Source: Actinomycetes bacterium (lineage in GTDB: Bacteria > Actinomycetota > Thermoleophilia > Solirubrobacterales > 70-9). Taken from it: a DNA stretch of 64,000 nucleotides. The DNA lies in assembly GCA_016861045.1 (NCBI GenBank), contig BOKP01000002.1, positions 434,001 through 498,000 on the forward strand. The letters run 5' to 3'. Below are positions 15,027 to 21,588 of the stretch, in pieces; positions within the stretch are counted from its first letter, which is position 1, and the number at the start of each line of letters is the position of its first letter. The notes under the pieces are model-generated. The model was not told the origin of the DNA. It was given only the letters and a program-made list of their open reading frames with translations, and ran no database searches. The translations under genes and the position numbers were made by a program.

Positions 15027-16241
15027 TCACGCCATCGCCCGCCGCAGGTTCCCGTCGATCGCGGCGAGGAACTCCTGGGTCGTCTGCCACTCCTGCTCGG
15101 GGCCGATCAGCAGCGCCAGGTCCTTGGTCATCCTGCCGCTCTCGACCGTCTCCACGCAAACCCGCTCGAGCGTCTCGGCGAACCCGCTCACCGCGGGGGT
15201 GTCGTCGAGCCGGCCGCGGGCGGCCAGCGCCCGCGTCCAGGCGAAGATCGAGGCGATCGGGTTGGTCGAGGTCGGGTTGCCCTTCTGGTGCTCGCGATAG
15301 TGGCGGGTGACGGTCCCGTGGGCGGCCTCGGCCTCGACCGTCCTGCCGTCGGGGGTCATCAGCACGCTCGTCATCAGGCCGAGCGAGCCGAACCCCTGGG
15401 CGACGGTGTCGGACTGGACGTCGCCGTCGTAGTTCTTGCAGGCCCAGACGTAGCCCCCCTCCCACTTCAGCGCCGCCGCGACCATGTCGTCGATCAGGCG
15501 GTGCTCGTAGCCGATCCCGGCCGCCTCGAAGTCGAGCTTGAACTCGCTCTCGTAGACCTCCTGGAACAGGTCCTTGAAGCGACCGTCGTACTTCTTGAGG
15601 ATCGTGTTCTTGGTCGACAGGTAGACCGGATAGCCACGGTCGAGGCCGTAGCGCATCGATGCCCGCGCGAAGTCGCGGATCGAGTCGTCGAGGTTGTACA
15701 TCGCCATCGCGATCCCGCTCGCGGGGAAATCGAAGACGTCGATCTCGATCGGCTCGCCCTCGTCCCTCGGGGTCCAAGTCAAAGTCAGGGTGCCGGCGCC
15801 GGGGACGAGCGTGTCCTCGGCCCGGTACTGGTCGCCGAAGGCGTGACGGCCGATCACGATCGGCTTCGTCCAGCCCGGAACGAGCCGCGGCACGTTCCCG
15901 ATCACGATCGGCTCGCGAAAGATGACGCCGCCGAGGATGTTGCGGATCGTCCCGTTCGGCGAGCGGTACATCTCCTTCAGCCCGAACTCCTCGACCCGGG
16001 CCTCGTCGGGGGTGATCGTCGCGCACTTGACGCCGACCCCGTGCTCTTTGATCGCATTCGCGGCATCGACGGTCACCTGGTCGCCGGTGGCGTCGCGGTT
16101 CTGGATCGCGAGGTCGAAGTAGACGAGCTCGACTTCGAGGTAGGGCAGGATCAGCTGCTCCTTGATGAACGACCAGATGATCCGGGTCATCTCGTCGCCG
16201 TCGAGCTCGACGATCGGGTTGGAGACCTTGATCTTCGCCAT
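15027..16241 (-). CDS. icd: NADP-dependent isocitrate dehydrogenase
   Basis: The gene encodes 404 residues from ATG at 16241, with GGAAGGA upstream. It belongs to the eukaryote-like homodimeric IDH type. Diagnostic segments are [16 protein letters not shown] at the N-terminus, the substrate-serine loop [32 protein letters not shown] and [13 protein letters not shown]. It oxidatively decarboxylates isocitrate to 2-oxoglutarate with NADP in the TCA cycle. It is monocistronic and ends at a strong hairpin. Confidence 0.96.
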
Positions 16242-16296
16242 CTGCTGGGGGTCCTTCCGGTCGGGGGGCGCCGGACCCTAGCGGCCTCAGCAGCCC

Positions 16297-19200
16297 TCAG
16301 GAGAGATCCTGCTTCAGCCAGCGACGAAGGAAATCCCTCATGGTCGCCAGCTCCCCGGCATCGAGCCCCCAGACTGCAGCCGCGGCGTCATCCACGGCGC
16401 CCTGGTCAGCCGACTCGCCAGCGTCCACCCGCCGATGGGCTTCTCGCGAAGCGGAGCTGACAGCAAAGTGCCGCGAATCCGAGGCCTCAAACGACGGAAC
16501 GACGACGACCTTCGTCGTGTGCGTCGAGATATGCGTCGCGACGTATCCGGCGATCAAGGCGCGCGCCGGCACGCTATTGAGCAGACCGCAGACGTAATGG
16601 GCCTCATCGGAGGACGAGCACGGGAGCAGCATGACGGTGTGGGCAGGCAGCGGGATCGGGTCCGTGGGCGGAAGCACCGCTGCGGCGAAATCGGAGGCGA
16701 TGTCCTTCCAGACCACCTTGTGCTCTGCCAGCGTGTAGTCGCCAACATTGAACATCGACCAATAGGGCCCGGTTTCCCTGGTCTCAATGCCCTCCTTCCG
16801 CGTGAAATAGCGCCTAATGGCAGCCCTCGACCGAAGATGGTCCTCGAACTGCGCGAGGTAGGAGAGGGCCCCTGGGAACTCTGTTTGCATCCGCCTCGTG
16901 TCAATCCCGCGACGCGTCGCAGGGTCTTGGACGAAGAGGATCTCGCAGGACGGCTTCGCCGACCAGCGCTGAACATCCTGACCGCGCAGCAACGGGTGCA
17001 GGAGGTCGGCCTCGACGCGACCAAATTTCCGAGGCAGGCTCGACCTGCCGACGTCATGGAGATTTTCGATCGGAACCTTGCCCTTCGAGACGTCATCAGA
17101 GCGTTCGACCCAGTAGACGCCATTCGCACCGCCGGTGTTGACGCCCTCATATGCCCGGTAGGCCGGCTCGCCTGTTTCGGCGAGCTTGCGGAGGCCCGGG
17201 ATGGCCCGCCGCGGGACCGTGAGCCAGGCCGAGGTCGAATCATCGTCGCGGACCGGCGCCGCGACGAGGCGCAAGCGCCTCGTTTGCTCCTCGACCTCCT
17301 CGGGGCTCGCATGCCGGTCGATTCCCCGGGCCTCGAGCCGCTGCCAGACCGTGTAGCCGACCGGGTAGCGGGTGGCGGCGTCGCGCTCCCAGACGAGGAT
17401 CGCGGTGCGGTTCGTGGCGCCGGTGAAGGGCTTCAGGTCGACCATGTCGTGGACGGCCGTGACACGGAACGACGGCCCGTCGTCTCCGAAGCGGAACCGC
17501 CGGAATCCCTGCCCGGCGCCGGCCGTCTTGAAGAGCGTCTCGGGCATGACGAAGCCGAGGCGTCCGTGCTCGCCGAGGAGGCGCTTCGAGACCACGTAGC
17601 TGAGCAGCATCGAGACGTCCTTCTTCCCTGCGCCGAGCAGGGCCGCCATTCCCTTGTGGACGTAGAGACCTGCCTCTTCCCAGAGGGCCTTGGTCCGCTC
17701 GCGGTAGTCCTCCGGTAACCCCTCCCAGTTGACCCACGGCGGGTTCCCGACGATCAAGTCGAATTCGCCGATGAACGCCGGCATGAACGCGTTTCTGATG
17801 ATCCGTGTCCAGATCCCGTCGATCGACCTGGAATGGAGCTGCCAGCAGGCGTCGAAGAAGTCCTCCAGCAGACGTCGCTCATCATCGTCGGCGCGACAGG
17901 CCCTCCCCGCCTCGGCGCCGAACCGCTCGCTGTCCCAGCCTTCTTCGAGCGCGAGCGTCGCGAGGTCGCAGACCGCACGAAGCTCCTCAGCGGTATCGAC
18001 GCAAAGCGGAAGCCGAAACGTCCCGACCGAGGTGCTCAGCTCAAGGCGATCTCCCGTGTGCATGGAAAGGAGCGTGGGGCTGAGGATCGAGTCCGCCAGG
18101 TAGACGGGAATCTCGCACCCCTCCGGGGGCGCCTCTGCCAAGAGCTGGCCGAGCGCGAGCACGTAGTTGACGCGCGAGGCGACCACGGCAAGCGGGTCGA
18201 TGTCGAAGCCAACGACGTTGTCGAGCACGCATGCGAGGGAATCGGAGCCGGAAGCGTTCTCGGCAAGAAGCGACGCGCGTAACTCGCGCACCGCCGAGAC
18301 GAGGAAGGTGCCCGTGCCGCAGGCAGGGTCAAGGACTCTCTCGTCCGGTCCTCCCTGATGCTCGACGGCACCCAGCACGCGTTCTGCCAACCAGTCCGGT
18401 GTGAAGTACTGGCCCAGGGCGTGGCGGACGGGGCGAGGCAAGAGCCCCTGGTAGAGGTCCTTGAGCAGGTCCCGTGCGTCTTCCGGGGAGACCTGCAGCG
18501 TCGCCGGGTCGTACGTCGCCAAGCGATCGACCACCGCGCGGACCGATGCCGTCACCTCGGCCGAAGTCCGCTCGAGAAACCAGCAGAAGACGTCCGGCTC
18601 GATCACGTTGTTCAGCCGCGCCTCGCGAAACGGAAGCCCTCTGTGCAGCTCCGCCAGCCGGGCGTTCAACTCTCCGTCGCCGAGGCCCTTCAGCTCGTCC
18701 AGGTGCCAGCTGGACCGTTCGAGGAATAGCGAGAGGGATAGCGCGGCGATCAGCTTCGTGACGATCGCGAAGTAGGTCTGAATCACGAACAGCCCGGTCG
18801 CGGCGTCGGTCTCGCCGGGGACGGTGCCGAGCACGTCCGCCAGTGCTTTCCGGGCATCCTTCTTGAGCGGGCTCTCCGCTTCGCCGGTGACGCCCGTCGC
18901 CACCGCGAAAGCGGACTCCCACTGATCGAACAACCGGGCCGGGAGATCATCGGGTCGCTGTCCCCTCTCCCGATCGAGCTGCGCCAACAATGATCGGACG
19001 GCCTTGTACGCGAGCGCACCCTCTCCGGCGAAGTCGCCGAGCAGGTTCTCGGCGATCAGCGCCTTTCCGGACTGAGCCGAAAGCAGCGTGTCGAGGAGGA
19101 GGCCCGCCGACTTGGCATCGACCGCGACCGGGTCGTCGACCCACCAGCGCCCGCTCCGGTAGCGGGCGAAGATCATGAAGTGGCCGTCGCAGGCCACGCC

Positions 19201-19602
19201 GGCGAGACGCGTGACCTGTCGACGCTCCTTCGCCGCCAAGCCGTCGATGTACGACTGCACCTGCTCGACGGCGTGCCGGTTTCCGTGGCTGTCTCTGGAA
19301 GCCGCCATTGCGCCCGGTGGCTCCCATTCGACGATAAGCCGGTTGAAGACAGCATCAGCTCGGCCGGTGGCGAGCGTCACCTCCCGACGTTCGTCCAGCT
19401 CGACGCCCAGGCGCTCGCACGCTTCAGCCAGCGCCTTCTCGGCACTCGCCCGGAAGTCAGCCTCACGGCCCGCGAACCGCTTGGCAGCGGACGAGAACGC
19501 CTCGGCGAGAGCCTCCCCCTCCTCAGGGATCCTGGCACGAAGGCTGGGCAAGGCCTTCAGGCGGCTCTCGGCGGCGCCTTCTCCTCGGGCTTCATCCACC
19601 AC
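16297..19602 (-). CDS. Type IIG restriction-modification enzyme (Eco57I-like methylase with N-terminal nuclease-like region)
   Basis: The gene encodes 1101 residues starting with GTG at 19602. The N-terminus carries a PD-(D/E)xK-like strand pair, GRADAVFNRLIVEWEPPG, with Asp83 and Glu92/Glu94. The usual lysine position is Glu (an ExE variant, as known for BamHI). The N6-adenine methylase core has LGQYFTPDWLA (396-406), motif I DPACGTGTF (425-433), VGFDIDP, and motif IV NPPW (620-623). A long C-terminal part (about 750-1100) looks like a target-recognition region. Such single-chain enzymes modify and cut DNA. No separate specificity subunit or endonuclease is nearby. Base composition is somewhat less GC-biased than in the neighbours, which hints at transfer. 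Confidence 0.85.
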   Translation of the reverse strand: MVDEARGEGAAESRLKALPSLRARIPEEGEALAEAFSSAAKRFAGREADFRASAEKALAEACERLGVELDERREVTLATGRADAVFNRLIVEWEPPGAMAASRDSHGNRHAVEQVQSYIDGLAAKERRQVTRLAGVACDGHFMIFARYRSGRWWVDDPVAVDAKSAGLLLDTLLSAQSGKALIAENLLGDFAGEGALAYKAVRSLLAQLDRERGQRPDDLPARLFDQWESAFAVATGVTGEAESPLKKDARKALADVLGTVPGETDAATGLFVIQTYFAIVTKLIAALSLSLFLERSSWHLDELKGLGDGELNARLAELHRGLPFREARLNNVIEPDVFCWFLERTSAEVTASVRAVVDRLATYDPATLQVSPEDARDLLKDLYQGLLPRPVRHALGQYFTPDWLAERVLGAVEHQGGPDERVLDPACGTGTFLVSAVRELRASLLAENASGSDSLACVLDNVVGFDIDPLAVVASRVNYVLALGQLLAEAPPEGCEIPVYLADSILSPTLLSMHTGDRLELSTSVGTFRLPLCVDTAEELRAVCDLATLALEEGWDSERFGAEAGRACRADDDERRLLEDFFDACWQLHSRSIDGIWTRIIRNAFMPAFIGEFDLIVGNPPWVNWEGLPEDYRERTKALWEEAGLYVHKGMAALLGAGKKDVSMLLSYVVSKRLLGEHGRLGFVMPETLFKTAGAGQGFRRFRFGDDGPSFRVTAVHDMVDLKPFTGATNRTAILVWERDAATRYPVGYTVWQRLEARGIDRHASPEEVEEQTRRLRLVAAPVRDDDSTSAWLTVPRRAIPGLRKLAETGEPAYRAYEGVNTGGANGVYWVERSDDVSKGKVPIENLHDVGRSSLPRKFGRVEADLLHPLLRGQDVQRWSAKPSCEILFVQDPATRRGIDTRRMQTEFPGALSYLAQFEDHLRSRAAIRRYFTRKEGIETRETGPYWSMFNVGDYTLAEHKVVWKDIASDFAAAVLPPTDPIPLPAHTVMLLPCSSSDEAHYVCGLLNSVPARALIAGYVATHISTHTTKVVVVPSFEASDSRHFAVSSASREAHRRVDAGESADQGAVDDAAAAVWGLDAGELATMRDFLRRWLKQDLS

Positions 19603-19790
19603 CGCCGATCGAGGACCCTGCGGGCGGCGAGCTCGGACCCGTAGGCGAGGACCATGTCGGCCGCGCGCTCGGGATCGATCCCGTAATCGGCCGCGATCCG
19701 CTCCCCCGCCTCGTCGACAGCGGTGTAGGGGTCGTGGTCGTGGTCGATGAGCGTCCGCTGCTCGTTGCTGTCGAAGAGCCGATCCTGCAT
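19557..19790 (-). CDS. Small acidic protein overlapping the restriction-modification gene
   Basis: The gene encodes 77 residues from ATG at 19790; an in-frame GTG at 19811 is an alternative. Its last 46 nt overlap the start of the type IIG gene in another frame, which suggests translational coupling. The sequence (MQDRLFDSNEQRTLIDHDHD, then YTAVDEAGERIAADYGID, then ADMVLAYGSELAARRVLDR) is acidic, with a helical C-terminal half and the ending WWMKPEEK. I do not recognise it. It could be a controller-like or accessory protein of the restriction system, but no helix-turn-helix is evident. Confidence 0.55.
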   Translation of the reverse strand: MQDRLFDSNEQRTLIDHDHDPYTAVDEAGERIAADYGIDPERAADMVLAYGSELAARRVLDRRWWMKPEEKAPPRAA

Positions 19791-19917
19791 CGCGTCCAAG
19801 CTAGAGCACAAGACGGACGATCAGAAGCGGTTTCGCGGCCCGACCGCCCTATTTGCACGATTGTCACGGTCCCGTTCGTGATTCGTCACGGGCTTGGCGA
19901 TCTGGCAGGATCCTGGC

Positions 19918-21588
19918 ATGGCAACGAAGTCGATCGGACCGTCAGCTGCCACGCACGCGGTCGTCAACCAGTCCGAGCCGCTCGCCGGCTACAACGTCTT
20001 CGCCGCCGACCGGGCCCTGGTCGAGGCCGTCGCCCGCGAGGGCGGCGACTTCGAGGTCGGGATGGTCCGCGAGGTCGGCGAGATCGCCGGACGGCCGGAG
20101 ACGATCGAGCTCGGCCGGCTCGCCAACGAGCACCCGCCCCGGCTCCGAGCCTTCGACCGCTACGGACACCGGATCGACGAGGTCGAGTTCCATCCGGCCT
20201 GGCACGAGGTGATGGCGATCCACGTCTCGCATGGCCTCCACTCCCTGCCCTGGCGGCGTCCGGAGCCCGGCGCCCACGTCGCCCGGGCGGCCGCCTTCAT
20301 GTGCATCTCGCAGGCCGAGGCCGGCTCCGGCTGCCCGATCTCGATGACCTACTCGGTGATCCCGGCGCTGCGCTGCCAGCCCGAGGTCGCGACCGAGTGG
20401 GAGCCCCGCTTCACCTCGCTCGACTACGACCCGCGGATGGTCCCGGCGCCGGACAAGGCCGGGGCTCTGGCGGGGATGGCGATGACCGAGAAGCAGGGCG
20501 GCTCCGACGTCCGCGCCAACACCACCGTCGCCGTTCCGCTGAACGGGGGCGGCCCCGGCGCCGAGTACGAGCTGACCGGGCACAAGTGGTTCTGCTCGGC
20601 GCCGATGTGCGACGCCTTCCTCGTCCTCGCCCAGGCCGAGGGCGGCCTCTCCTGCTTCCTGCTGCCGCGCTGGACCCCCGACGGCGAGCGCAACGGCTTG
20701 CGGGTGGAACAGCTCAAGGACAAGCTCGGCAACCGCTCGAACGCCTCGAGCGAGATCGAGCTGCGCGGCGCCTGGGCGCGGATGGTCGGCGCGGAGGGAC
20801 GCGGGGTCGCGACGATCATCGAGATGGTCAGCCACACCCGCCTCGACTGCACGCTCGGCTCGACCGCCGGGATGCGTGCCGGCACCGCGCAGGCGATCTG
20901 GCACTGCGAGCATCGGTCGGCGTTCGGCCGGCTCCTCGTCGAGCAGCCGCTGATGGCGAACGTCCTCGCCGACCTCGCGATCGAGTCCGAGGCGGCGACG
21001 GTCGCCGGCGTCTGGCTCGCACGCCAGTTCGACGAGGCACACGCCGGCGACGAGCGGGCGGGGCTGATCCGCCGGATCGCGACGCCGGTGCTGAAATACT
21101 GGACCTGCAAGCGCGCCCCCGAGCACGCGGCCGAGGCGCTCGAGTGCCTCGGCGGCAACGGCTACGTCGAGGACTCGGGGATGCCGCGGCTGTACCGCGA
21201 GGCGCCGGTGATGTCGGTCTGGGAGGGATCGGGGAACGTGCAGGCACTCGACGCCCTGCGGGCGCTCGCCCGCGAGCCCGCGGTGCTCGAGCCGCTGCTC
21301 GAGGAGATCGGCGCCGGGGCGGAGGCCGAGCCGCGGCTGCGCGCCGCCGCCGACTCGCTCGAGCGCGACCTCGCCGACGGCAACGGGCTCGAGACGCGGG
21401 CGCGACGCCTGGTCGAGCGGACGGCGCTGGCGCTGCAGGGCTCGCTGCTCGTCCGCTGGGGCGATCCCGCCGTCGCCGACGCGTTCTGCGCGACGCGGCT
21501 CGACCGCGACTGGGGCAACGCCTTCGGGACGCTGCCGCCGGGCGTCGACACGGCGGCGATCATCGAGCGCCATGCCGTCCGGATCTGA
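19918..21588 (+). CDS. AidB-like acyl-CoA dehydrogenase
   Basis: The gene encodes 556 residues. The start chosen is ATG at 19918, preceded by AGGA, rather than the in-frame ATG at 19894. The length and the motif MTEKQGGSDVRANTTVA are typical of the AidB/DNA-alkylation-response branch of flavin acyl-CoA dehydrogenases. Other family segments are GHKWFCSAPMCDAFLVLAQ, DKLGNRSNASSEIEL and the C-terminal ECLGGNGYVEDSGMPRLYRE. AidB of E. coli binds DNA and has weak isovaleryl-CoA dehydrogenase activity. The downstream enoyl-CoA hydratase suggests a metabolic role here. The two genes are adjacent or slightly overlapping and should be co-expressed. Confidence 0.9.
   Translation: MATKSIGPSAATHAVVNQSEPLAGYNVFAADRALVEAVAREGGDFEVGMVREVGEIAGRPETIELGRLANEHPPRLRAFDRYGHRIDEVEFHPAWHEVMAIHVSHGLHSLPWRRPEPGAHVARAAAFMCISQAEAGSGCPISMTYSVIPALRCQPEVATEWEPRFTSLDYDPRMVPAPDKAGALAGMAMTEKQGGSDVRANTTVAVPLNGGGPGAEYELTGHKWFCSAPMCDAFLVLAQAEGGLSCFLLPRWTPDGERNGLRVEQLKDKLGNRSNASSEIELRGAWARMVGAEGRGVATIIEMVSHTRLDCTLGSTAGMRAGTAQAIWHCEHRSAFGRLLVEQPLMANVLADLAIESEAATVAGVWLARQFDEAHAGDERAGLIRRIATPVLKYWTCKRAPEHAAEALECLGGNGYVEDSGMPRLYREAPVMSVWEGSGNVQALDALRALAREPAVLEPLLEEIGAGAEAEPRLRAAADSLERDLADGNGLETRARRLVERTALALQGSLLVRWGDPAVADAFCATRLDRDWGNAFGTLPPGVDTAAIIERHAVRI

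What the first reader, a model, noticed from the sequence alone, without database searches (positions are those of the whole stretch)
16297..19790. Single-chain restriction-modification enzyme with an ExE nuclease variant and a coupled small gene
The N-terminal nuclease-like motif has Glu where most PD-(D/E)xK enzymes have Lys, and a 77-residue protein overlaps the start. Either the nuclease uses a BamHI-like ExE site or it is inactive, leaving a methylase with a small partner. The partner has no known family.
Basis: partly seen in the sequence, partly recalled or inferred. Interest (0 to 1): 0.5.

Follow-up and report, generated by a model that had tools for sequence, protein, structure and literature searches.

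The report
One-chain restriction enzyme with small partner
An actinobacterium carries an apparently acquired pair of genes: a known kind of one-protein enzyme that both marks and cuts DNA, whose unusual cutting site is already described in relatives, and a small conserved partner protein of unknown role.

Summary
The 1101-aa minus-strand ORF is a single-chain Type IIG restriction-modification enzyme (PADLOC PDLC03630, E=9.6e-294). Its nuclease motif is D83-E92-x-E94, and a 77-aa ORF overlaps its start by 46 nt. The ExE site is neither new nor a sign of decay. It is published for the active TspDTI/TthHB27I/TsoI enzymes. It stands in 10 of 24 relatives aligned, changed with ExK at least 4 times on one tree, and in near relatives the nuclease is as conserved as the methylase. 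The small gene is the less ordinary half. It stands directly before the enzyme in the two nearest relatives too (45 and 43% identity), was not found beside more distant ones fetched, and fits no family. The pair lies between genes that are direct neighbours in 3 of 6 related genomes read, so it probably came as a cassette. Best reading: a working enzyme close to the TspDTI subfamily with a dedicated small accessory. Boldest reading not excluded: the small protein tethers the enzyme to the replication clamp; the motif fits only partly. Interest is modest.

The parts
16297..19602 (-). Type IIG restriction-modification gene, 1101 aa, GTG start (GTG at 19599 is an alternative)
   Evidence: ORF; PADLOC PDLC03630 REase_MTase_IIG E=9.6e-294 over residues 44-1092, PDLC03580 E=6.4e-206; Pfam N6_Mtase, Eco57I and UPF0020 above cut-off
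19123..19470 (-). N-terminal PD-(D/E)xK-type nuclease domain, about residues 45-160
   Evidence: E47, D83, E92, E94, Q114, Y118 the same in 10 of 10 ExE rows; AlphaFold order helix 47-65, strand 84-86, strand 89-93, helix 106-126, strand 134-138
19321..19356 (-). D83-E92-x-E94 catalytic motif (ExE)
   Evidence: alignment; same spacing as published TspDTI D66-E75-E77
18310..18330 (-). SAM-binding motif I, DPACGTG, residues 425-431
   Evidence: sequence; alignment A1, where the A/S and T/S positions vary
17734..17745 (-). methylation motif IV, NPPW, residues 620-623 (m6A type)
   Evidence: sequence and alignment
16513..17232 (-). probable target-recognition domain, about residues 791-1030
   Evidence: structural matches of model residues 390-1082 to M.BseCI and 399-1041 to M.TaqI; boundaries are my estimate
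19557..19790 (-). small gene, 77 aa, overlapping the enzyme gene by 46 nt
   Evidence: relatives directly before the enzyme in L013 and L014, 45 and 43% identity; three helices 23-36, 40-50, 53-66
19773..19787 (-). QDRLF, residues 2-6 of the small protein; QxxLF in all three copies
   Evidence: alignment A2; partial match to the clamp-binding motif
16284..19944 (.). inserted segment between isocitrate dehydrogenase and AidB-like genes; outer limits
   Evidence: the flanking genes are adjacent in G001, G002, G003

Best explanation
A horizontally acquired two-gene Type IIG restriction-modification cassette. The large protein methylates adenine in an asymmetric DNA site and, when the site is unmethylated, cuts a short distance away with a metal-dependent nuclease that uses D-ExE instead of D-ExK. 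The small protein is made first, with translational coupling to the enzyme, and is a dedicated accessory: its folded three-helix part most likely binds the large protein or DNA and its N-terminal MQxxLFD peptide docks on a second protein, so that it tunes when or where the enzyme acts. Shown by sequence: domain order, motifs, gene pair, different content of the site in relatives. Inferred: activity, site type and cutting distance (from TspDTI-type enzymes), coupling, and everything about the small protein's action.
For: PADLOC match over residues 44-1092. Identity of nuclease and methylase parts to the window: L013 61/59%, L014 65/64% (methylase over 131 positions only), L039 46/46%, L016 43/42%, L043 41/40%, so no sign of a decaying nuclease in these. 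ExE in 10 of 24 aligned members, with Ala before the catalytic Asp in 9 of those 10 and in 0 of 14 ExK rows (one of the 14, L045, is D-x-K). At least 4 ExE/ExK changes on a tree built without the nuclease. D-EXE is reported for TspDTI-type enzymes that cut DNA. The published 35-residue TspDTI N-terminus scores 14.1 bits against the clade's N-terminal profile (built from 7 rows), reached by 0 of 5000 shuffles, the best shuffle being 13.9; the spacing R-32-D holds in 5 of 6 rows and D-9-E in 6 of 6. Small gene in 3 of 399 genomes of the class at E below 1e-30, all three beside the enzyme gene. Flanking genes adjacent in G001, G002, G003. GC3 of the enzyme gene 82.8% and of the small gene 91.0%, against 94.5-97.2% for four nearby genes.
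Against: No activity data of any kind for this enzyme; the published D-EXE motif was itself assigned by bioinformatics, not by mutation. No full TspDTI-subfamily sequence could be compared. Motif I is DPACGTG, not the (D/P)PACGSG given for that subfamily. In the distant ExK relative L024 the nuclease is less alike than the methylase (26 against 33%). The nuclease domain was not matched to a solved nuclease in its own right (rows span mainly 181-1082), and the model is middling (mean pLDDT 68.9, residues 71-82 under 50). The small protein has no Foldseek match at E<=0.001 (best 0.71); the only sequence match in the PDB is a designed three-helix miniprotein (E=0.00032). Only three copies of the small gene were found, one on a contig that breaks off inside the enzyme gene.
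Confidence: 0.62

Rival explanations
1. The nuclease is dead and the protein is now only a methylase with a small partner.
For: Lys is the usual residue at position 94; no cleavage data exist for this enzyme.
Against: Nuclease as conserved as methylase in five near relatives; the six positions E47, D83, E92, E94, Q114, Y118 identical in 10 of 10 ExE rows; repeated ExE/ExK change; active enzymes with the same site are published.
Confidence: 0.1
2. The small gene encodes a transcriptional controller (C-protein-like) that delays or limits expression of the enzyme.
For: Arg-rich third helix and two helices joined by a short turn, 40-50 and 53-66; two distant relatives have a gene annotated ribbon-helix-helix (L022) or helix-turn-helix (L024) directly upstream; L014 has a 22-nt imperfect inverted repeat (73%) around its start.
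Against: No DNA-binding family above a cut-off in Pfam or NCBIfam; upstream repeats are not shared: one 9-nt overlapping palindrome and one 8-nt pair 116 nt apart in the window, none in L013; there is no separate nuclease gene to delay.
Confidence: 0.22
3. The small protein is a translation leader only: its reading couples and limits expression of the enzyme, and the product itself does little.
For: 46-nt overlap the same in window and L014.
Against: 26 invariant positions of 77 columns, MQxxLFD and helix residues among them; third position most changed, which points to selection on the protein; the overlap is not the same in L013.
Confidence: 0.08
4. The small protein tethers the enzyme to the replication sliding clamp through QxxLF, so that new strands are methylated before they can be cut.
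For: Q, L, F invariant at residues 2, 5, 6 in 3 of 3 copies while the following linker varies with indels; QxxLF anywhere in a shuffle of this protein occurs in 0.19%; Hda is a precedent for a clamp motif in a disordered N-terminus.
Against: The canonical motif has an aliphatic residue at position 2: the three copies have D, Q and G. Stretches that code for MQxxLFD are no commoner than a reversed control in 21 genomes (9 against 9). In 24 enzymes of the family the motif is not in excess: 0, 1 and 1 matches to three forms of it against shuffle means of 1.5, 3.7 and 5.2. The motif was chosen after seeing the alignment.
Confidence: 0.1

Closest known systems
TspDTI subfamily of Thermus Type IIG/IIC enzymes (TspDTI, Tth111II/TthHB27I, TsoI, CchII)
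   Same: about 1100 aa, order nuclease-helical linker-m6A methylase-recognition domain, D-EXE with identical spacing, NPPW, similar N-terminus
   Different: motif I GTG for GSG; has a small upstream gene (section 6 of PMC3384240 reports no methylase or DNA-binding similarity in TspDTI's flanks and does not speak of a small gene); specificity unknown
PADLOC REase_MTase_IIG PDLC03630
   Same: match over residues 44-1092, E=9.6e-294
   Different: the small protein matches no PADLOC model at E<=1e-5 (best 0.021)
MmeI, DrdV, BpuSI (solved single-chain R-M enzymes)
   Same: mainly the part after residue 178 superposes, Z 13.2, 12.5, 10.4
   Different: not among the PDB sequence matches at E<=1e-3; nuclease part not compared by itself; ExK in MmeI and BpuSI is recalled
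BamHI
   Same: D-ExE active site, as cited in PMC3384240
   Different: stand-alone dimeric enzyme without a methylase domain (recalled)

Membership tests
Type IIG single-chain R-M enzymes | nuclease, m6A methylase and recognition domain in one chain | tested here: met
   by sequence and model only:
Type IIG single-chain R-M enzymes | SAM-affected cleavage outside an asymmetric site | not testable with these tools
   needs the enzyme
TspDTI subfamily | atypical D-EXE nuclease motif | tested here: met
   D83-E92-E94, spacing as D66-E75-E77
TspDTI subfamily | SAM motif (D/P)PACGSG | tested here: not met
   window has DPACGTG; L016 has DPACGSG
TspDTI subfamily | NPPW methylation motif | tested here: met
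   residues 620-623
TspDTI subfamily | full-length similarity to TspDTI or TthHB27I | tested here: inconclusive
   only the printed 35-residue N-terminus was available; no genome handle for Thermus
beta-clamp binding motif proteins | Gln at 1, L/M at 4, F/L at 5 | tested here: met
   3 of 3 copies
beta-clamp binding motif proteins | aliphatic residue at 2 | tested here: not met
   D, Q, G
PqqD (PF05402) | score over Pfam's cut-off | tested here: not met
   16.3 bits against 23.4 for the window's copy

The most novel reading that the evidence does not exclude
The small protein is a clamp adaptor for a one-strand-methylating Type IIG enzyme: it carries the enzyme behind the replication fork so that freshly made, unmethylated sites are methylated before the enzyme's own nuclease cuts them. 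This would bear on how R-M systems with asymmetric sites survive replication, which a 2025 review calls mostly obscure (PMC12707154, passages).
Probability: 0.1. Interest if true: 0.75.

Novelty: new variant of a known kind. Interest (0 to 1): 0.3.

Why it matters
For the enzyme, little: it adds an actinobacterial relative to the D-EXE Type IIG enzymes and shows that ExE and ExK interchange within one family, with Ala before the catalytic Asp going with ExE. The small gene matters more. Single-chain Type IIG enzymes are usually regarded as self-sufficient (recalled), so a conserved partner of no known family, apparently inserted with the enzyme, suggests an added control or targeting step that can be tested directly.

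Tried and rejected
Rejected: dead nuclease as first choice. PqqD relationship: below cut-off; of the three weak class hits (E 0.002-0.008) one lies in a PqqD-like ORF by eye, and none of the three stretches read matches the enzyme. Small gene in plasmids (E up to 0.1) and viral contigs (E up to 1e-3): no match. The clamp reading was kept only as the bold case because position 2 fails and the controls show no excess. What is missing from the VIA-align rows proves nothing. Literature, judged from listings only: searches (no paper; 1; 72, 15 listed; 18, 12 listed; 128, 10 listed) showed me no paper on a clamp motif in R-M systems or a small partner of Type IIG enzymes; that is not proof that none exists.

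Limits of the counts. The genome search scored only the best candidates of its first look (2 per genome), so weak relatives can be missed. Of the 26 loci none was added: 14 are contigs already held, the other 12 (L061, L062, L068-L075, L077, L078) were not examined. Of 128 plasmid records with a match I read 8 (L022-L029); a Thermus thermophilus plasmid record (L117) was looked at for its gene table only and not aligned. Of six relatives read at the insertion site, G001, G002 and G003 show the two genes as direct neighbours, G004 and G005 have other short sequence between them, and in G007 isocitrate dehydrogenase was not found there.

Full report
What is there. On the minus strand an 1101-codon ORF (16297-19602) and a 77-codon ORF (19557-19790) overlap by 46 nt. 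The large one matches PADLOC's Type IIG model over residues 44-1092 at E=9.6e-294 and Pfam's N6_Mtase and Eco57I above their cut-offs. The small one has no match above a curated cut-off in Pfam or NCBIfam, and its best E-values are 0.021 in PADLOC and 0.25 in PHROGs.

Relatives. Close full relatives are rare. In the genome collection 3 loci were confirmed: L013 (Candidatus Gaiellasilicea maunaloa, class Thermoleophilia) at 56% over residues 45-1101, L014 (an Actinomycetota MAG, 59%), which breaks off at its contig's end, and L015, a short methylase match. In 396 genomes of the phylum 6 match at E<=1e-20, window included; only one other, L016, matches over nearly the whole length, at 36%. In 399 genomes of the class 8 match at E<=1e-40, window included; from contig lengths and places G639 is L013's genome and G692 that of L014. 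Viral contigs add 14 loci, among them L039 (42%), L043 and L040. Plasmids give 128 records with a match, all under 60% identity, 19 of them over at least 80% of the protein.

The ExE motif. In an alignment of 24 family members ExE stands in 10 (window, L013, L014, L016, L028, L033, L039, L043, L047, L051) and ExK in 14 (one of them, L045, D-x-K). Ala precedes the catalytic Asp in 9 of 10 ExE rows and in 0 of 14 ExK rows. A tree of residues 176-700 needs at least 4 changes between the states (quick method, several long branches, 5 of 21 inner branches open, so the number is rough). Identity by domain shows the nuclease kept as well as the methylase in L013, L014, L039, L016 and L043, though not in the distant ExK relative L024 (26 against 33%). 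This fits two working forms of one site better than repeated loss.

Literature. [quoted passage not shown] the motif was assigned by bioinformatics, not by mutation. PMC3751577 (passages) adds CchII and describes recombinant TsoI as active. The TspDTI N-terminus printed in PMC3384240 scores 14.1 bits against the profile of the window's clade; 0 of 5000 shuffles reach this, but the best comes to 13.9, so this is weak support on its own. The distance from the conserved Arg to Asp (32) is the same in 5 of 6 rows and from Asp to Glu (9) in 6 of 6 (L043 has an insertion). I therefore place the enzyme close to the TspDTI subfamily, but do not file it as a member: its SAM motif is DPACGTG and no full subfamily sequence could be compared.

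Structure. AlphaFold gives mean pLDDT 68.9, with the helix-strand-strand-helix-strand order of a PD-(D/E)xK core at 47-138. The rest resembles M.BseCI (Z 14.7, rmsd 6.1, 471 aligned), CamA (14.3, 6.1, 470), MmeI (13.2, 6.5, 587) and PglX/BrxX (13.1, 6.0, 622). The nuclease was not tested alone.

The small gene. Copies were found in the window, L013 and L014, each directly before the enzyme with a start codon at the same site. The overlap is 46 nt in the window and L014; in L013 the listed enzyme start is a TTG that overlaps by 4 nt. Among 399 class genomes 3 have it at E below 1e-30, all beside the enzyme; 3 further hits at E 0.002-0.008 are weak and have no enzyme match in the stretches read. 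It was not found beside L016, L039 or the other loci then held. The model shows a low-confidence N-terminus and three helices (pLDDT about 90 for residues 21-60). Foldseek finds nothing at E<=0.001; its best rows are a designed three-helix miniprotein and a UBA-like domain, and the same miniprotein is the only PDB sequence match (E=0.00032). M1, Q2, L5, F6 and D7 are invariant while residues 8-15 vary with indels. QxxLF resembles the sliding-clamp motif, whose definition in PMC11139829 (passages) also asks for an aliphatic residue at position 2; none of the three copies has one, and two controls show no excess of such motifs.

Mobility. The genes on either side, isocitrate dehydrogenase and an AidB-like acyl-CoA dehydrogenase, are direct neighbours in G001 and G002 (same genus) and G003 (same family), 3 of 6 relatives read. 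G004 and G005 have other short sequence between them, and in G007 isocitrate dehydrogenase was not found beside AidB. Homology to G001-G003 stops at 16283 at the latest and resumes at 19945 at the earliest. The segment between holds these two genes and about 150 bp upstream. GC3 is 82.8% for the enzyme gene and 91.0% for the small gene, against 94.5-97.2% for four nearby genes. The pair was gained together, or lost together in relatives. The GC3 favours gain, and so does: in the 60 other genomes searched there, the matches found cover only parts of the enzyme (the longest, in G003, residues 612-927 at 30%).

Judgement. The enzyme is a working-looking relative of a known kind. What remains open is the small partner. 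A binding partner that tunes the enzyme is the most economical reading; a controller is next; a clamp adaptor is the boldest and would bear on how one-strand methylation survives replication (PMC12707154, passages). That such enzymes methylate one strand only is recalled, not tested.

Noticed in passing
L016:785-6166 (minus): An ExE relative of the enzyme starts 10 nt after a 474-aa ORF that looks like a HerA-type ATPase by eye (no Pfam match at 0.001) and lies before a SocA/Panacea-domain ORF: a different neighbourhood for the same enzyme family.
   Followed up: partly
L113:4271-8089 (minus), same genome as the window: The only other N6_Mtase place found in the genome: a 1272-aa protein with two N6_Mtase stretches, about 2.7 kb from an ISL3-type transposase ORF.
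   Followed up: partly
window 16241-19918: The spot between isocitrate dehydrogenase and AidB-like genes holds other short sequence, with short ORFs by eye, in G005 and G004, so it may tolerate insertions.
   Followed up: no
window residues 82-94 of the enzyme (19321-19359) and relatives: Ala before the catalytic Asp goes with ExE (9 of 10) and not with ExK (0 of 14): a possible coupled change of the active site.
   Followed up: partly
L039, L043: ExE Type IIG genes on contigs classed as viral in IMG/VR, possibly phage-borne.
   Followed up: no
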